Shown: piece by piece, positions 22,735 to 34,765 of the stretch
Numbering within the stretch: the first letter of the stretch is position 1
Layout: each line of letters opens with the position of its first letter
DNA from: Elusimicrobiota bacterium
GTDB taxonomy: Bacteria; Elusimicrobiota; Elusimicrobia; UBA1565; UBA9628
NCBI GenBank assembly: GCA_028714015.1
Contig: JAQTNG010000005.1
Location: 1 to 40,165 of the forward strand
Direction of reading: 5' to 3'
Length of the DNA stretch: 40,165 nt
The notes under the pieces: generated by a model
Databases searched by the model: none
What the model was told of the DNA's origin: nothing
The model's input: the letters and a program-made list of their open reading frames with translations, nothing else
Position numbers and translations under genes: made by a program

Positions 22735-25700
22735 CTAGGGTTTAGCGGCCTCTTTGGCCGCGCCCGCGGGCACACGCTCCACGAAGGCGTCGAGCGCGTC
22801 GCCGATCTCCAGGGCCGCGGCGCGGTACGCGGCGTCGCTGCCGCCCCAAGGATCGTCGATGTCGCCGCCGACCTTCGTGTACTCGGCCAGCGAGAACACC
22901 TTGCCCTTGGCCTCGGGGTGGAGCTTGAGCACCGTCTGCGCCTGCCCGCCGGTCATCGTGAGGATCAAGGCGCTTCCCGCGACGTCGGCGGCGGTGAGCG
23001 GCAGCGCCTGGTGGCCTTCGGCGTCGACGCCCAGGCCCGCGAGCGTCTGCCGGGCCTTCGCGTTCATCGCCTCTCCCGGCCGGGAGACCGAGAGGCCCCG
23101 AGAGATCACATCGATGTCCGGGCGGCCGCGGCGGGAGAGCTTCTCGCGCGCGAGGTGCGCCGCCATCGGCGAGCGGCAGGTGTTGCCGGTGCAGACGAAC
23201 AGGAGCCGCTTGGGCTTGGGCGCCTGCGCGGGCTTGACCTGGGAGCCCTGGGTCACCGCCGGCACCGGCGCCTGCTTCTCGGCGCCGTTGCCCGTCACCG
23301 AGCGGGACTGGAGTATGTAGAGCTTGTCGCCGACGAAGCCGAACTCGATGTCGAGCGCGTAGCCGAAGTGGCGCTCGAGCGCGACGGAGACGTCGGAGAG
23401 GATCTTGAGCTTGGCCGGGGACATCGAGCGGCGCCGGCGCCACTCGGGCGGCATCTTGTGCTCGATCGTGCCGCGCCCGTCCTTGCCGCGCACGATCGCG
23501 AGCTTCTTGTCGGAGATCATGGGAGGAAGCAGCTCGAGGCCGGATTTCTTCGACAGGACGTACTGGTCGGGGGCCACGCGCCCGGAGACGATGCCCTCGC
23601 CGAGGCCGAACGCGGCGTTGACGATCACGCGCCCCGAGCTGCCGGAGACCGGGTCCTGCGTGAACGCCACGCCGGAGACCTCGGAGTCGACCATCGCCTG
23701 GACGACGACGGCCTGGGCCAGGTTCGTCGTGGACAGGCCGCGCGTCTGCCGGTAGAGCAGCGCGCGCGGGTTCCAGAGGGAGGCCCACACGTCCTTGACG
23801 TGCTCGAGCAGCTCCGACGGGTCCACGTAGAGATGAGTGTCGCCGGCGCCCGCGAAGGCGGCCTCGGCGCCGTCCTCGTCGACGGCCGACGAGCGCACGG
23901 CGAGCGGGGTCGAGTTCAGGCGCTGGGCGGCGAGGCCGGCGAGGATCTCGCGCCCGACGCCGTGCAGCGGGGAGAGCTTCGCGTCGAGGATCAGGCGCCG
24001 CGCGCGCTCGGAGCGCTGCTCGGGCGTCAGGCGCGCGTCGGCGCCCAGGGCCTCGAGGCGCTCGGATATGCCGGACTCCTTGAGGAAGCGCCGGTAGGCG
24101 TGGACGGTCAGCGCGATGCCCGGCGTGACCTCGCCGCCGGCCGCGCGCACGACGGCGGCGATCTCGCCGAGCTTGGCCGCCTTGCCGCCCACCCAGGGCA
24201 CGTCCACGTCGAGGATGGCGGCCAGAGGAAGCACCGCGGGCGCGGCCGCCTCCATGGCGGCGCGGCGGGAGCCCTCGAGGCGCGCGGCCTGCTCTTCCCA
24301 TTTGCGGATCATGTCCGGGTTCATGCCTCGGCGGCGGGCCTTGGCGATGGCGGACTTGATGCGCGGCAGGGCCTCGACCGTGGCGGCGGGAAACAGGCGC
24401 GCGTGGGTCTGGAGCTCGGACATCTCCTCGGCGAGGAGCTTCTCGTGGCGCTCGTGCGCCTCGGCCTTAAGCCCCGCGATCGAGATCTCGTAGGAGGCGA
24501 GCTCGGCCTTGCGGCGTCCGAGCTCGACGGCGATCGCGCGCAGGCCGCGCGCGCGCTGCTCGGCCTCGCGCCAGAGGCGCTCAACGGATTCCGTCGACAG
24601 GGACTCGGCGATGAGCTCGCGGCGCTCCGAGAGATCCGCGAGGGCGTCCTGGAGCTCGGCGGAAAAGCGCGCGTCGAGCGCGTCCGAGGCCAGGCGTCCG
24701 ATCGCGTCCTCCGGGCCGGGTATGACGGACAGCGCGCGGGCGAGAGCTTTGACCGCCCGGGGATCGGCCAGGGCGCGCGAGAACAGGCCGGCAAGGGCCT
24801 CGCGCACGAGGACCGACTTCTGCTCGTGCTGCAGGGACGACGCCGCCTGGCGGTTGCGCAGCCACTGGGCCAGCGCGCCGGCGTCGCCCGAGGCGTCGAA
24901 GCGCTCGAGCGCCCCCGCGGCGTCGAGAAGCGCCGCGCTCGAGCCCGCCGGGAAGAGCTCGACGACTCCCGTCGCGGGATCCAGGCGCACCACCTCGCCT
25001 TCGAGCAAGGCGAGGGCGGCCGCGGGCCTCGCGGGGCGCGCGATGAGCCCGCCGGCGCGGACCGGCTCGCCCAGATCGAAGGAGCTCAGCGACGCCGAGC
25101 CGTCCTTCCATTCGACGCCGGGCAGGATCGCGGCGGGTATGCCCATCTCGCGCGTCGTGATCGCGGCGTGGCTGAGAAGGCCGCCCGAGGTCGTGATCAC
25201 CGCCTTCGAGGCGCGGATCGCGTCGAGGTCGTCGGGCGTGGTGTAGGGGGCCACGAAGATGAAGCCGCCCGCGGCGGCCTTCGCCTTGTCGTAGGTCACG
25301 CGCGCGAGCAAGGTCCGCCCGTGGCCGGGGCTGGCGGCCATGCCCTGGAAGCTCCGGCCGAAGGACGCGCGCGCCGGGGCCGGCTCGCGCAGCAGCTTCT
25401 GGAAATAGGCCAGCCCGGGAGGCGACTGCGAGGGCTCGAACTTGGCGACCGGATGGCCCTGCGCCCGGAGCGCCTCGAACAGGGCGCCCGGCGTCAGCGC
25501 GCGCGGCTTTTCGCCCGGCTCGAGCGCCAGGATCTCCGCGCGGGCCAGGCCGATCTGGCCGTTCTTCGGATCGCGCAGCGCATAGACCGTCACCCACGCG
25601 TCCGGGTCGAGACGGCGCTGGGCGCGCTCGACGCTCAGCGCGCCGAGCGCGCCGATCGTCTCGTACCGGAACAGCGACGGATCGAGCGAGGAGACGACCT

Positions 25701-27963
25701 CCGCCATGCGCGCGCCGCCGACCGTCTCCCCGCCGAACGCCGCCGCCAGGGACGCGAGCGGATTGTACGAGGCGTTGCGGGCGAGGCGCCCGTCGGCGAT
25801 GAGGCGCAGCTGACCGCGCGCGATGGCGGCCTCGATCGGCTCGTTGACGAAGCGGTCGATCGTCCGCTGACCCAGCCTCTCTTCGGCGGGGATCTTCGGC
25901 AACCCCAAGGCCTCCAGGTTCTCGTCGAGCGCCGCGCGCAGGAGCGCGCGCTCTCTCCGCTCGGACTGGTACTGCTGCCAGCCCGCCACCATCGCGTTGT
26001 GATCGTCGTGGACGTAGAAGGGCAAGGTTCCCTCTCCGATCACGGTGTCCACCCAGTCGTCGATGCGCTGCCCGACCTCCTCGCTCGTCTTGGCCCCCGA
26101 GACGAGCATGGGCAGGGCGAAGTCCACGCCGACCGTCGCGTGCAAGGCCTGCACGACGAGCGCGAAGGTGTCGGTCATCTCGTCGACGGTCTGCGAGGCG
26201 TGGTCCTTGTCGATCACCGCGGTCAGGAAGCCGTTTTTCTGGTCCACATGGAAGCCGGCCTTATGCAGGAGGCGGCCGACGTAGTAGAGGCGGGTCTGGT
26301 TGTCGTAGAGCGTGCCCCACTCCTGATAGCGCACGCGGATCATGCCGCCCTCGTCGGGCTGAAGGAAGCTCGCGTAGATCTCGGCCGAGTGCGCGCCGAG
26401 CTTGAAGTGGCCCCAGAACTGGTGGTCCTGCATGATCAGCGAGCCCTTCGGCGTGTCCTTCGAGCGCGTCATCGCCGCGAGCAGCGCCTTGAAGCCGGGA
26501 GAGACGACGCGCCCGTCCCTGACGAGAGGGTTCTCCGACAGGTCCACGAGGGACACGGCCTTCTCCGCGGCGCCCGAGCCCAGGCGCACGGTCAGGTTCG
26601 CGGGCGAGGCGGCGTTCGTCCTGCCGACGGCCTCGAGAGCCTTCTGGTGGAGGTAGTTGAGGTACTTGTGCAGCGCGGGCGTGTCGATCGGCATCACGAG
26701 CTCAACGGCCCGAGGCGGCAAGAGGTCGGAGTCGGAGAGGCCGCGCACCGTCGCCTCGAGCAGGGCGCCGAGGCGCTTGACCTCGAGCTTCACGCCGAAG
26801 GCTTCCGCCGTGCGGGCGTCGTCGCCTTCGGCGAGCTTCGCGTAGGCCTCGGCCATCGCCGCCACGTGGCCGTGCACCGCGCGCGCGGTCTTCACCGTCA
26901 TCTTCGACGAGCTCTGCGCGATCAGCTCGAGCGCCGCGAAATTCGACTCGATGAGGCCGTTGAAGACCGAGAAGCGCGCGCGCAAAGCGGCGGTTCCGGC
27001 CGCGTCCTGGCCGCGCTCGAGGCGCACGCTCACGGCCTCGTCGGCCGTCTTCGCCACGGCCAGGCCCGCGGCGACGGGCGGCGCGTACAGCACGCGGTAG
27101 CCGAGCGCCACGAACCGCTCGCCGCGCCCGGAGCGGACGAGGATCTTGTCGCCGAGCTCCGGCTTCTTCCAGGGAAAAGCCTTGAGCGCCGGCTTGGGCT
27201 CCAGCACCGCGAGCGCGGGCGGCTCGCGGTCCGGCTCGGCCTCGGGATTGGCCTTGGTGAACGCCGACGCGACCGAGTCCCAGGCCTCGGACGCCGCGTC
27301 CGCCGCCGCGCCGATCTTGCTCTTGAGCCAGCGCTTCGCGCCCCCGGCCTTCGGCGCGGGAGGCTCCATCGCAAAGCCCGTTTTCGCCCCGTCCTTCCCC
27401 GCCGGCGCCAGGCCCGGCGAGCGCCCGGCGGCGGGATCGGCGGCGAGAGCAAAGACGCCGGTCTCCCCGTCGCCGGCCCGATCCCCGGAGCCGTCGTACA
27501 ATTGCTTGAGCTTTGCGTCCGACGGCGCGGCGCCGGTCTTGACCGCTTCATTCGCCCCGCCGAGCAACCGGGCATCGAGTTCGCCGGCCGACGCGGCGGA
27601 ATGCGAGGGCGCATCGATCGCCGGCGGCGCGGGCAACCGGACCTTCTTGGTTTTGGGCGCGGCCTTCGCCGCCGGGGGATTGAGCTCGGCCGCGGCGGGC
27701 TGAACGGCGGCCGCCGGCTTGGCCAGAGGCGCCGGCGCCGCATTGACGCCGAGCGTCGGCGCGAGCCCGAGGCCGAGGCCCGGGACGACGGACACTCCGC
27801 CGTTGACGCCGGGGGCGAGGCCGCCGACCGTCCCGGCCTGGCCGTGGCCCGTGCCGGCATTGCCCGCTTCTCCGGGCAAAGCGACGTCCACCGAGCGCGC
27901 GGGACCCGCCAGCAGGGCGGATAAGAGGAAGGCGAGGGCTCCCCGGAGGGGCGGCGGGGCCAT
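22735..27963 (-). CDS. Exported fusion: PEP-utilising His domain, PPDK ATP-binding domain and LMW protein phosphatase
   Basis: The 1742-residue product begins MAPPPLRGALAFLLSALLAG with a signal-peptide-like segment. An Ala/Pro-rich low-complexity region runs to about 270, then an unrecognised region (about 270-880). A phosphohistidine swivel domain (about 880-970) carries TSGGLLSHAAITTREMGIPA with His932. A charged coiled-coil stretch (about 1080-1240) comes next. A PPDK-type ATP-grasp domain (about 1245-1560) has VGGKAAKLGE, AVRSSAVDEDG and LYILQSRSVT. A low-molecular-weight phosphatase (about 1585-1730) has CTGNTCRS (Cys1591, Arg1597) and general-acid Asp1704 in DDPWGG. All key residues are present, but the PEP-binding barrel of PEP synthase is missing and the domain order is unusual. 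An ATP-using enzyme behind a signal peptide is odd. Substrate unknown. Confidence 0.85.
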   Translation of the reverse strand: MAPPPLRGALAFLLSALLAGPARSVDVALPGEAGNAGTGHGQAGTVGGLAPGVNGGVSVVPGLGLGLAPTLGVNAAPAPLAKPAAAVQPAAAELNPPAAKAAPKTKKVRLPAPPAIDAPSHSAASAGELDARLLGGANEAVKTGAAPSDAKLKQLYDGSGDRAGDGETGVFALAADPAAGRSPGLAPAGKDGAKTGFAMEPPAPKAGGAKRWLKSKIGAAADAASEAWDSVASAFTKANPEAEPDREPPALAVLEPKPALKAFPWKKPELGDKILVRSGRGERFVALGYRVLYAPPVAAGLAVAKTADEAVSVRLERGQDAAGTAALRARFSVFNGLIESNFAALELIAQSSSKMTVKTARAVHGHVAAMAEAYAKLAEGDDARTAEAFGVKLEVKRLGALLEATVRGLSDSDLLPPRAVELVMPIDTPALHKYLNYLHQKALEAVGRTNAASPANLTVRLGSGAAEKAVSLVDLSENPLVRDGRVVSPGFKALLAAMTRSKDTPKGSLIMQDHQFWGHFKLGAHSAEIYASFLQPDEGGMIRVRYQEWGTLYDNQTRLYYVGRLLHKAGFHVDQKNGFLTAVIDKDHASQTVDEMTDTFALVVQALHATVGVDFALPMLVSGAKTSEEVGQRIDDWVDTVIGEGTLPFYVHDDHNAMVAGWQQYQSERRERALLRAALDENLEALGLPKIPAEERLGQRTIDRFVNEPIEAAIARGQLRLIADGRLARNASYNPLASLAAAFGGETVGGARMAEVVSSLDPSLFRYETIGALGALSVERAQRRLDPDAWVTVYALRDPKNGQIGLARAEILALEPGEKPRALTPGALFEALRAQGHPVAKFEPSQSPPGLAYFQKLLREPAPARASFGRSFQGMAASPGHGRTLLARVTYDKAKAAAGGFIFVAPYTTPDDLDAIRASKAVITTSGGLLSHAAITTREMGIPAAILPGVEWKDGSASLSSFDLGEPVRAGGLIARPARPAAALALLEGEVVRLDPATGVVELFPAGSSAALLDAAGALERFDASGDAGALAQWLRNRQAASSLQHEQKSVLVREALAGLFSRALADPRAVKALARALSVIPGPEDAIGRLASDALDARFSAELQDALADLSERRELIAESLSTESVERLWREAEQRARGLRAIAVELGRRKAELASYEISIAGLKAEAHERHEKLLAEEMSELQTHARLFPAATVEALPRIKSAIAKARRRGMNPDMIRKWEEQAARLEGSRRAAMEAAAPAVLPLAAILDVDVPWVGGKAAKLGEIAAVVRAAGGEVTPGIALTVHAYRRFLKESGISERLEALGADARLTPEQRSERARRLILDAKLSPLHGVGREILAGLAAQRLNSTPLAVRSSAVDEDGAEAAFAGAGDTHLYVDPSELLEHVKDVWASLWNPRALLYRQTRGLSTTNLAQAVVVQAMVDSEVSGVAFTQDPVSGSSGRVIVNAAFGLGEGIVSGRVAPDQYVLSKKSGLELLPPMISDKKLAIVRGKDGRGTIEHKMPPEWRRRRSMSPAKLKILSDVSVALERHFGYALDIEFGFVGDKLYILQSRSVTGNGAEKQAPVPAVTQGSQVKPAQAPKPKRLLFVCTGNTCRSPMAAHLAREKLSRRGRPDIDVISRGLSVSRPGEAMNAKARQTLAGLGVDAEGHQALPLTAADVAGSALILTMTGGQAQTVLKLHPEAKGKVFSLAEYTKVGGDIDDPWGGSDAAYRAAALEIGDALDAFVERVPAGAAKEAAKP

Positions 27964-31696: not shown

Positions 31697-33733
31697 ATGA
31701 AACACGCCCTCCTCCTTCTCGTTTTGTCGTCGGCCGCGTCGGCCGCGTCCGTGCCGTTTCTCCCGGCGTCGACTTTGCGCTACGAGCCGACGGCGGTCGA
31801 GCTGATGGAGGACTGCCGCTCAGCCAAGAAGCGCGCCGAGTCGGCGCTCGAGGGCGTCGCGAGCATGCCCGCGGGCAGCCGCACGTTCGACAATACGCCC
31901 TGGGCGCTCGACCGGATCGGTTCCGACCTCTCGGACAACACCGCGTCCGACACCTTCCTCAAGTACGTCTCGGTCTCCTCTTCCGTGCGCGACGCCGGCA
32001 ACGAGTGCGAGACTTTGCTCGGCCAGTTCTCAGTGGACATGTACTCGCGCGAGGACCTGTACCGCGCGCTCAAGGAGTACGCGGCCAAGGGCGAGGCGCT
32101 GACCGGCGAGTCGAAACGCCTCGTCGACAAGGAGCTGCTCGACTTCAAGCGCTCCGGTCTCGAGCTGCCGAAGGACAAGCGCCAGGAGGTCACCGACCTG
32201 CGCAAAAAGCTCGTCGAGCTCGAGGCGACGTTCGGCAAGAACATCAACGAGTACAAGGACTTCGCGCTGTTCGACAAGTCCGAGCTCGACGGCCTGCCCG
32301 AGGACTTCGTCGCGCGCCTGGAGAAGGTCGACGGCAAGTACAAGGTCGGCCTCGATTACCCCGACTACTTCCCGTTCATGGAGAACTCCTCGAACCCGGC
32401 CGCGCGCCGGACCATGGAGGCCAAGTTCGACGACCGCGCCGCGCGCCTGAACCTGTCGGTGCTCAAGGAGGTCCTCGCGCTGCGCCTGAAGGCCGCGAAC
32501 CTCCTCGGCTACCCGTCGCACGCGGCCTTCATCCTCGAGGACCGCATGGCGAAGGACCCGAAGACGGTGGCCGCCTTCGTCGCCCGCCTGCGCAAGAAGC
32601 TCAAGATCCTCGGCGCCGACGAGCTCGAGACGCTCAAGGCCCTCAAGTTCGTCTTCGAGGGCCGCGCCTCCGACGGCCGGTTCAACGCCTGGGACTGGCG
32701 CTACTACGACAACCAGCTCAAGAAGGCCAAGTACTCCGTGGACAACCAGAAGATCAAGGAGTACTTCCCCGCCGACTACGTGACCGAGCAGATGCTCGGC
32801 GTCTACCAGAAGCTCCTGGGCCTGAAGTTCCGCGAGGTCACCGACGCCGGGACCTGGCACCCCGACGTGAAGCTCTTCGAGATCACCGACGCCGCGGGTG
32901 GGGAGCCGATCGCGTACTTCTACCTCGACCTGTTCCCGCGAGAGGGCAAGTACAAGCACGCCGCCGCGTTCTCGATGATCACGGGCCGGGCGCTCCCCGA
33001 CGGGCGCTACCAGAAGCCGGTGTCGTCGATGGTCGCCAACTTCAACAAATCGACAAAAGATCGCCCGTCCCTGCTCACGCACGACGAGGTCGAGACCTTC
33101 TTCCACGAGTTCGGCCACATCATGCACCAGACCCTGACCAAGGCCCGCTACGGGCGCTTCGCCGGCTCGGCGACCGCGCGCGACTTCGTCGAGGCCCCGT
33201 CGCAGATGCTCGAGAACTGGGTCTGGGACCGAGAGGTCCTGCAGTCGCTGTCGGGCCACTACCTCGACCACTCCAAGAAGCTGCCCAACGAGCTCCTGGA
33301 CAGGATGCTCGCGGCCAAGAACGTGAACTCCGGCCTCGTCAACCTGCGCCAGCTCCTGTTCGGGTCGGTGGACCAGCTCTACCACGGGACCCCGCCTTCC
33401 GACACGACCAAGGCCTACGCGCGCCTGGCCAAGGACATCTCGATGATCCCGATGTCCGAGGGCACGCATCCCGAGGCGAGCTTCGGCCACCTGATGGGCT
33501 ACGACGCGGGCTACTACGGCTACCTGTGGTCCAAGGTCTACGCCGAGGACATGTTCTCGCGCTTCAAGGCGGAAGGAGTCCTCAATTCCGCGCTCGGGCG
33601 CCGCTACCGGACCGAGATTCTGGAACGCGGCTCGTCGCGCGACGAGATGGAGTCGCTCAAGGCCTTCCTCGGCCGCGAGCCCAACGAGAACGCGTTCCTC
33701 GAGAGCATCGGGTTGAAGCCCGGCAAGAGCTGA
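31697..33733 (+). CDS. Exported M3-family oligopeptidase (thimet oligopeptidase-like)
   Basis: The 678-residue product begins MKHALLLLVLSSAASAASVP, a signal peptide. A long helical body is typical of M3 enzymes. The catalytic region has FFHEFGHIMHQTL with zinc ligands His470 and His474 and catalytic Glu471, and the third ligand Glu499 in FVEAPSQMLENW. A DAGYYGYLWSKVYAEDMFSRF segment near the C-terminus is also characteristic. All catalytic residues are present. M3 enzymes cut short peptides inside a closed channel. Most bacterial members (OpdA, Dcp, PepF) are cytoplasmic, so a signal peptide is less usual and points to peptide digestion in the periplasm, together with the nearby M14 enzyme. 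Strong inverted repeats flank the gene on both sides. Confidence 0.93.
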   Translation: MKHALLLLVLSSAASAASVPFLPASTLRYEPTAVELMEDCRSAKKRAESALEGVASMPAGSRTFDNTPWALDRIGSDLSDNTASDTFLKYVSVSSSVRDAGNECETLLGQFSVDMYSREDLYRALKEYAAKGEALTGESKRLVDKELLDFKRSGLELPKDKRQEVTDLRKKLVELEATFGKNINEYKDFALFDKSELDGLPEDFVARLEKVDGKYKVGLDYPDYFPFMENSSNPAARRTMEAKFDDRAARLNLSVLKEVLALRLKAANLLGYPSHAAFILEDRMAKDPKTVAAFVARLRKKLKILGADELETLKALKFVFEGRASDGRFNAWDWRYYDNQLKKAKYSVDNQKIKEYFPADYVTEQMLGVYQKLLGLKFREVTDAGTWHPDVKLFEITDAAGGEPIAYFYLDLFPREGKYKHAAAFSMITGRALPDGRYQKPVSSMVANFNKSTKDRPSLLTHDEVETFFHEFGHIMHQTLTKARYGRFAGSATARDFVEAPSQMLENWVWDREVLQSLSGHYLDHSKKLPNELLDRMLAAKNVNSGLVNLRQLLFGSVDQLYHGTPPSDTTKAYARLAKDISMIPMSEGTHPEASFGHLMGYDAGYYGYLWSKVYAEDMFSRFKAEGVLNSALGRRYRTEILERGSSRDEMESLKAFLGREPNENAFLESIGLKPGKS

Positions 33734-33896
33734 CGACGCTGATGCAGGCCGGGGCGGGGAGATTCACCCTCGCCGGGGACGGTCGGGATTGACCCGACCT
33801 CCGGGGTCTGTCCGCGACGTATAAAAGACTCTTGTCGCGGCAGACCCAGGCCGCCGGCGAGGGTGAATCTCCCCGCCCCGATTGACCTGCGTCGTC
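33732..33896. repeat. Branched inverted-repeat element with a 27-bp perfect outer stem
   Basis: The 27 bases at 33750-33776 are the exact reverse complement of 33854-33880. Inside lie two more hairpins. GGTCGGG/CCCGACC (33781-33787/33793-33799) has a 5-base loop. GGGTCTG-T-CCGCGAC (33804-33818) pairs with GTCGCGG-CAGACCC (33834-33847) around a 15-base loop. Outside, GCAGG/CCTGC (33744-33748/33886-33890) and GACGAC/GTCGTC (33732-33737/33891-33896) extend the pairing. The whole folds as a three-way junction filling most of the 189-base gap between two convergent genes. No ORF is evident in the gap. It may be a structured RNA, a bidirectional terminator or a MITE-like element. Confidence 0.85.
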
Positions 33897-33922
33897 ATCG
33901 TCGCCCGAGGCCCGGCGGCGAG

Positions 33923-34765
33923 CTACGGCTTCCCGTCGGCGTAGATCGTGCGGGTCTCGGGGTTGGTCTCGCGCACGCCGCGGACCTTGAGCGCCCACGC
34001 GGCGGCGAGGCCCGCGGCGAGCGACACCCACTGCGACGGCGACAGCGCCGACGAGAGGAACACGCCGCGGTCGTCGCCGCGCAGGAACTCGATCGAAAAC
34101 CGCAGGATCGAGTAGTAGAGGATGTAGCCGATGAACGCGGTGCCGTAACGATACTTCCCCGCGCGGATGCCCGGCATCACCCAGCCGATGAGGACGGCGG
34201 CGGCCAAGGCCTCGCCGAACGCCTCGTAGAGCTGGGTCGGGTACAGGAGGACGCCGAGCAGGCGCGGCGGCACGCTCGACGCCGGGTCCATGAACGCCGA
34301 GCCCCAGGGCAGGCCGGTCGGGCGCCCGTGGCAGCAGCCCTCGGTCCAGCAGCCGATGCGGCCGAGCACGTGGCCCATCGCCAGCGCGGCCGCGAAGTAA
34401 TCGGCCACGGGAAGGTAGGCGCGCGGGCGGTGCGTCTTGTTGTGCCAGACCTGATAGAGAAAGCCCGCGAGGCAGGCGAGCAGGAAACCCGACCAGAACA
34501 CCCAGCCCGTGTTCCACTCGCGCAGCATCGGCCTGGGATTCGCGGCGAAATCGCGCCACTCGACGATGAAGAAGCCGAGCTTGCCGCCGGCCAGGGCCGC
34601 GACAAGCAGGGTCCCCACCAGGGAATAGAACAGCGCCGGCGTGGCCTGCATGTTCTTGACCTGGGTCCGCAGCCAGACGATCCCGGTCAGGTAGCCGAGC
34701 GCGACGAGGACCGAGTAGGTGGCCAGCGTCGTTCCGTCCGCCCAGCGCCACAGGATCGGGTGCAT
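33923..34765 (-). CDS. lgt: Lgt, prolipoprotein diacylglyceryl transferase
   Basis: Lgt attaches diacylglycerol from phosphatidylglycerol to the lipobox Cys of prolipoproteins in the inner membrane. The 280-residue product has about seven membrane segments. It carries the family signature HVLGRIGCWTEGCCHGRPTG, with the conserved GRxGC Arg, plus YPTQLYEA and RFSIEFLRGDDRG. Length is normal. Its ATG follows the stop of the CFA-like gene after one base, so the two form an operon. Several lipoproteins encoded in this window are likely substrates. Confidence 0.95.
   Translation of the reverse strand: MHPILWRWADGTTLATYSVLVALGYLTGIVWLRTQVKNMQATPALFYSLVGTLLVAALAGGKLGFFIVEWRDFAANPRPMLREWNTGWVFWSGFLLACLAGFLYQVWHNKTHRPRAYLPVADYFAAALAMGHVLGRIGCWTEGCCHGRPTGLPWGSAFMDPASSVPPRLLGVLLYPTQLYEAFGEALAAAVLIGWVMPGIRAGKYRYGTAFIGYILYYSILRFSIEFLRGDDRGVFLSSALSPSQWVSLAAGLAAAWALKVRGVRETNPETRTIYADGKP

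What the first reader, a model, noticed from the sequence alone, without database searches (positions are those of the whole stretch)
33732..33896. 165-bp three-way-junction inverted repeat between convergent genes
A 27-bp perfect outer stem encloses two further stable hairpins, and shorter pairings extend outwards to the stop codon of the M3 peptidase. This is far more structure than a bidirectional terminator needs, and there is no T-tract. Possibilities are a MITE- or REPIN-like mobile repeat, a structured non-coding RNA, or a recombination or replication site.
Basis: seen in the sequence. Interest (0 to 1): 0.7.

Follow-up and report, generated by a model that had tools for sequence, protein, structure and literature searches.

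The report
Mobile DNA repeat with self-matching arms
The structure is one surviving half of a scattered, apparently mobile DNA repeat found essentially in one genus of Elusimicrobia bacteria; its long stem changes quickly between species, yet its two arms nearly always change together, so they still match base for base.

Summary
In detail: 33750-33776 and 33854-33880 form a perfect 27-bp stem enclosing two hairpins (z -9.9), with pairing out to the M3 stop codon. It is not single copy. A covariance model finds 16 copies in this genome and over 100 in the genus (Elusimicrobia MAGs). All 40 close doublets face each other (+ then -), whatever the gene orientation. In genome G007 the ~430-bp doublet occurs at five unrelated sites with 87-98.5% identity (two truncated by contig ends). 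At the window's own site one sister species has both halves, two keep the other half, and several have none; the window keeps one half plus a 13-nt scrap of the other. Between species at the same site the outer stem changes fast, but both arms change together (383 paired Watson-Crick changes against 115 one-sided), with no G-U excess. So pairing is kept at DNA level, probably by template switching, and not as RNA. Best reading: a non-autonomous REPIN/BIME-like mobile palindromic element with unusually large three-way-junction units, here decayed to one half. The mobilising enzyme is not identified; RAYT genes are present but none is flanked by this repeat.

The parts
33731..33739 (+). outer arm P0 (TGACGACGC), includes the stop codon of the M3 peptidase; the unit's left edge lies just after the stop codon, about 33735
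   Evidence: perfect 9-bp complement of 33889-33897; unit edge inferred from where G007 doublets stop being alike
33750..33776 (+). 5' arm of stem P1, hypervariable between copies
33781..33799 (+). hairpin P2, GGTCGGG-ATTGA-CCCGACC, loop ATTGA conserved in most copies
33804..33847 (+). hairpin P3 with one bulge and a 13-nt loop (33820-33832)
33854..33880 (+). 3' arm of stem P1, perfect complement of 33750-33776
33889..33897 (+). outer arm P0' (GCGTCGTCA)
33738..33886 (+). covariance-model match to the family (157 bits); 'B' half of an inverted doublet
   Evidence: the window is among the ten sequences the model was built from
33908..33920 (-). 13-nt remnant (AGGCCCGGCGGCG on +) of the 'A' half of the doublet, 2 bp before the Lgt stop codon
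   Evidence: sister genomes G003, G016 and G007 have an A copy at this position; sequence read directly
31697..33733 (+). host gene: M3 family peptidase (PF01432), upstream neighbour
33923..34765 (-). host gene: prolipoprotein diacylglyceryl transferase Lgt (PF01790), convergent neighbour

Best explanation
This is one half (the B half, with a scrap of the A half) of a decayed, roughly 430-bp non-autonomous mobile palindromic element. The full unit is two large three-way-junction palindromes in inverted orientation, joined by a short spacer that often carries its own hairpin. SHOWN: dispersed repeat, inverted doublets, occupancy differences and decay at an orthologous site, conserved three-way-junction architecture, paired W-C-only change of the arms. 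INFERRED: it spreads as a folded single-stranded DNA acted on in trans by an enzyme that recognises the folded junction and its conserved loops (a Y1/HUH transposase such as the RAYTs in these genomes is the leading candidate, about 35% likely). The stem arms stay matched because replication template switching copies one arm from the other, so stem sequence drifts fast while complementarity persists (about 60% likely). After insertion the copies probably have no obligatory host function and decay by deletion.
For: 16 copies in the own genome and over 100 in the genus. 40 of 40 close doublets are in the (+,-) order, in convergent, tandem and divergent settings. Doublets in G007 at five sites share 87-98.5% identity with no flank homology; two of the five are truncated by contig ends. 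At the Lgt/M3 site G003 has both halves, G016 and G007 keep A, the window keeps B, G009 has none (3 bp between the stop codons) and G001 a 24-bp spacer without a copy; the more distant G017 and G018 have none. Covariation: 1148 double-change cells against 332 (sd 14) in shuffles. Between orthologous copies 383 double W-C changes against 115 single-sided ones, of which 19 G-U and 43 A-C. Window against G003: 7 of 22 stem pairs changed on both sides, core 94% identical. G-U mismatches do not exceed A-C (15 v 48). Paired changes are more clustered than in shuffles. Arm homogenisation by template switching is a known process (PMC8604942, PMC7202029). RAYT-like genes are present in the genus.
Against: No element copy lies within the 32 stretches read around 28 Y1 genes, so the mobiliser is unproven; G013 and G014 have 8-9 model matches and no detected Y1 gene (draft MAGs; G014 is 72% complete). 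No target-site duplication was seen by eye. Many copies sit at orthologous sites shared by several species, so most are old. Direct proof of transposition is lacking; spread or replacement by gene conversion is possible. Ortholog comparisons share branches and are not independent.
Confidence: 0.7

Rival explanations
1. Domesticated DNA structure: the three-way junction is a binding site (for a cruciform, nucleoid, replication or recombination protein) kept by selection at fixed intergenic sites.
For: Copies persist at the same orthologous sites in up to five species with mostly 80-93% identical flanks; conserved loops and junction, variable stem.
Against: Absent or decayed in close sisters at the window site, absent from four genomes of the genus, proliferation in G007.
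Confidence: 0.15
2. Structured non-coding RNA or 3' UTR element of the upstream gene.
For: Very stable fold; many copies start 2-12 nt after a stop codon; massive covariation.
Against: Doublets have a fixed mutual orientation in all gene contexts, including divergent ones. G-U pairs are below 1% of P1 cells and mismatches show no G-U over A-C preference. No Rfam match.
Confidence: 0.08
3. Bidirectional transcription terminator only.
For: Sits between convergent genes.
Against: No T-tract; much larger than needed; also between tandem and divergent genes; dispersed repeat family.
Confidence: 0.04
4. A variant of the mobile reading: the three-way-junction core is an insertion that targets the centre of existing palindromes (REPINs, terminators), so that the outer arms belong to the target. 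Compatible in part with the best explanation.
For: Four copies lie exactly between inverted GTGTCAGGC REPs that elsewhere enclose 11-18 nt or a RAYT gene. Outer arms are palindromic in register around other copies (L018, L086, L081, window).
Against: Only 18 of 110 copies have outer complementarity above the null 99% level. Outer arms differ between orthologous copies (window against G003), so they change after insertion.
Confidence: 0.3

Closest known systems
REPIN (REP doublets forming hairpins, associated with RAYTs; Bertels and Rainey 2011, PMC3116915)
   Same: Extragenic, inverted doublet as the replicative unit, singlets as decay products, non-autonomous, RAYT-like genes in the same genomes.
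   Different: Unit is a ~145-nt three-way junction instead of a 20-40 bp REP; stem sequence hypervariable; no RAYT gene found flanked by it.
BIME (bacterial interspersed mosaic elements; PMC2817692)
   Same: Palindromic units in alternating orientation with modular spacers, mosaic subfamilies.
   Different: Far larger units, low copy number (up to about 30 model matches per genome), doublets and not longer arrays.
Large palindromic bacterial MITE-like repeats (e.g. bcr1, ERIC, NEMIS; from own knowledge)
   Same: About 100-500 bp, highly structured, dispersed in intergenic DNA, non-coding.
   Different: No terminal inverted repeat of a known IS and no target duplication seen; two three-way junctions per unit.
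Parvovirus (AAV-type) inverted terminal repeat, by analogy only (own knowledge)
   Same: T-shaped palindrome: one outer stem, two inner hairpins, in inverted orientation at two ends.
   Different: No virus and no rep gene seen; a few hundred bp in total; no homology tested or implied.

Membership tests
REPIN / REP-RAYT system | extragenic palindromic units occurring as inverted doublets | tested here: met
   40 of 40 close doublets in (+,-) order, intergenic
REPIN / REP-RAYT system | unit is a short REP (20-40 bp palindrome) | tested here: not met
   unit is ~145 nt with two internal hairpins
REPIN / REP-RAYT system | cognate RAYT gene flanked by the same repeat | tested here: not met
   no model match at E up to 1 in 32 stretches around 28 Y1 genes; the two examined closely carry a different REP (GTGTCAGGC), and REPs of that kind enclose four copies
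REPIN / REP-RAYT system | spread within a genome | tested here: met
   87-98.5% identical doublets at five unrelated G007 sites, two of them truncated by contig ends
MITE of a DDE transposon | terminal inverted repeats shared with an autonomous IS | not tested
   no IS library on hand; no autonomous copy found among the loci read
MITE of a DDE transposon | target-site duplication | tested here: inconclusive
   none evident by eye in the G007 copies or at the Lgt/M3 site
structured RNA family (Rfam) | match above gathering score | tested here: not met
   no match to 4227 families
structured RNA family | stem tolerance of G-U pairs as intermediates of compensatory change | tested here: not met
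   G-U 15 v A-C 48 among P1 mismatches; 19 of 115 single-sided ortholog changes
intrinsic terminator | T-tract after the stem | tested here: not met
   sequence from 33880 is GATTGACCTGCG
integron attC site | same-orientation sites following cassette genes in an array | tested here: not met
   sites lie between conserved host genes and in inverted doublets

The most novel reading that the evidence does not exclude
A mobile element class whose ends are T-shaped single-stranded DNA palindromes (recalling parvovirus ends) recognised by shape and loop, and whose stem is continually rewritten by self-templated synthesis, so that stem sequence is freed from conservation while perfect pairing is inherited.
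Probability: 0.25. Interest if true: 0.8.

Novelty: new variant of a known kind. Interest (0 to 1): 0.6.

Why it matters
It adds an unusually large, architecturally conserved palindromic unit to the miniature mobile repeats of bacteria, in a mostly uncultured phylum. It also offers a natural set of over 100 copies, many at shared sites in several species, in which arm-to-arm templating of a palindrome can be measured. It warns that massive covariation alone does not prove an RNA structure: here pairs change together with almost no G-U.

Tried and rejected
(1) 3' UTR module, one per gene: rejected, doublets keep their mutual orientation in divergent and tandem settings. (2) Autonomous element between two distant copies: the gene between the L074 copies is a host M16 peptidase. 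(3) RAYT flanked by the repeat: none. (4) Inverted duplication of a gene's 3' end at L092, noted early: withdrawn, the arm is a GTGTCAGGC REP. (5) Terriglobia hit of the pattern scan: chance, no model match. (6) Viral contigs: no pattern match. (7) Literature: nothing relevant under Elusimicrobia + palindromic repeat or three-way junction + palindromic + miniature inverted-repeat. (9) The end of the script failed on an index; the identities were recomputed. (10) A notebook entry says 15 of 18 genus genomes; the right count is 15 of 19 with the own genome included.

Full report
OBSERVATION. The structure is there at the stated place. A perfect 27-bp stem (33750-33776 with 33854-33880) encloses hairpin P2 (33781-33799, loop ATTGA) and hairpin P3 (about 33804-33847). 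The fold has -155.4 kcal/mol, z -9.9 against shuffles, and a further 9-bp pairing (33731-33739 with 33889-33897) reaches the stop codon of the M3 peptidase. No Rfam family matches.

IT IS A REPEAT. A DNA search of the own genome finds further copies, the longer ones at 80-89% identity. A covariance model built from ten of them finds 16 places in this genome and matches in 14 of 18 other genomes of the genus; outside the genus only three genomes of two other genera of the family have one or two weak to moderate matches, and none in other families. A second, stricter search of 248 genomes of the phylum gives matches only in the genus. An exact-pattern scan of 84,980 species gives 14 contigs, 13 of them Elusimicrobia MAGs; the Terriglobia one has no model match. 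Viral contigs give no match to the pattern.

ARCHITECTURE. 110 copies align to one model: P1, P2, P3, a conserved junction and conserved loops. Cells with a change on both sides of a pair number 1148, against 332 (sd 14) in shuffles and at most 234 when partners are slid. Copies come as doublets: all 40 close pairs are + then -, with 1-146 bp between them, in convergent, tandem and divergent gene settings alike (genes were called by a simple codon-usage score). The spacer often carries a TATCGCC..GGCGATA hairpin. So the unit is the doublet, and the gene settings follow from where it landed.

SPREAD AND DECAY. In genome G007 the doublet occurs at five sites with 87-98.5% identity over the aligned unit and no homology in the flanks; two of the five are cut by contig ends. 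At the window's own Lgt/M3 site, G003 has both halves; G016 has only the A half; G007 has A and a stripped B; the window has B and a 13-nt scrap of A at 33908-33920; G009 has 3 bp between the stop codons; G001 has 24 bp and no copy; the more distant G017 and G018 have none. The simplest reading is one insertion followed by loss of halves, though precise loss in the empty genomes cannot be fully excluded. Many other sites are shared among species whose flanks are mostly 80-93% identical, so most insertions are old.

PAIRING IS KEPT AT DNA LEVEL. Across 110 copies most P1 positions use three or all four Watson-Crick pair types. Among mismatches in P1, G-U (15) do not exceed A-C (48), as they should if an RNA were selected. 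Some A-C mismatches are inherited within subfamilies, so only the absence of a G-U excess is claimed. Between orthologous copies 383 pairs changed on both sides and stayed Watson-Crick, against 115 one-sided changes; the comparisons share branches and are not independent. Window against G003: 7 of 22 P1 pairs changed on both sides while the enclosed core is 94% identical. Paired changes cluster along the stem more than in position shuffles (2 of 1000 as high) or column shuffles (0 of 1000). Template switching between inverted-repeat arms is known to homogenise arms (PMC8604942; PMC7202029) and is the most economical cause; it is inferred, not shown.

WHAT MOVES IT. Y1_Tnp genes occur in 14 of 19 genomes of the genus; two examined ones score 77 and 79 bits against NCBIfam's REP-associated tyrosine transposase, just under its cut-off of 80. 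They carry a different repeat, GTGTCAGGC..AATTCGTTGAATTC, beside them, on both sides and inverted in the G016 case. No three-way-junction copy lies in the 32 stretches read around 28 Y1 genes. Four copies, however, lie precisely in the centre of REP doublets of that kind, where other doublets have 11-18 nt. This ties the element to the REP world without proving that RAYT moves it; the element may instead insert in palindrome centres.

COMPARISON AND VERDICT. It works like a REPIN/BIME-type miniature mobile palindrome but fails two defining tests for REPIN (short REP unit; cognate RAYT flanked by it), so it is filed as a new variant of that kind and not as a member.

Noticed in passing
L156 2367-3180, L146 2598-3411, L230-L234: A second repeat family, GTGTCAGGC-type REPs, lies beside RAYT-like genes and forms REPINs with matching but variable inner bases (CAACT, CAGTG, CAGCT, CTGCG); paired drift of arms seems to occur here too.
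   Followed up: partly
doublet spacers, e.g. L014 2801-2896, L099 1007-1131: The spacer between the halves often holds a TATCGCC..GGCGATA hairpin, GCTTC..GAAGC and AACGGC runs, perhaps a third repeat family.
   Followed up: no
window 22735-27963 (-): 1742-aa protein joining PEP-utilising (PF00391), PPDK_N (PF01326) and low-molecular-weight phosphotyrosine phosphatase (PF01451) domains; an unusual combination.
   Followed up: no
L074, L091, L100: One host gene (an M16 peptidase in L074, the copy that was checked) has element copies on both sides in three species.
   Followed up: partly
G007 and G003 contig ends (e.g. G007:C85, C78, C101, C109, C122; G003:C111): Several copies lie at contig ends, so assemblies probably break in this repeat and copy numbers are likely underestimates.
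   Followed up: no
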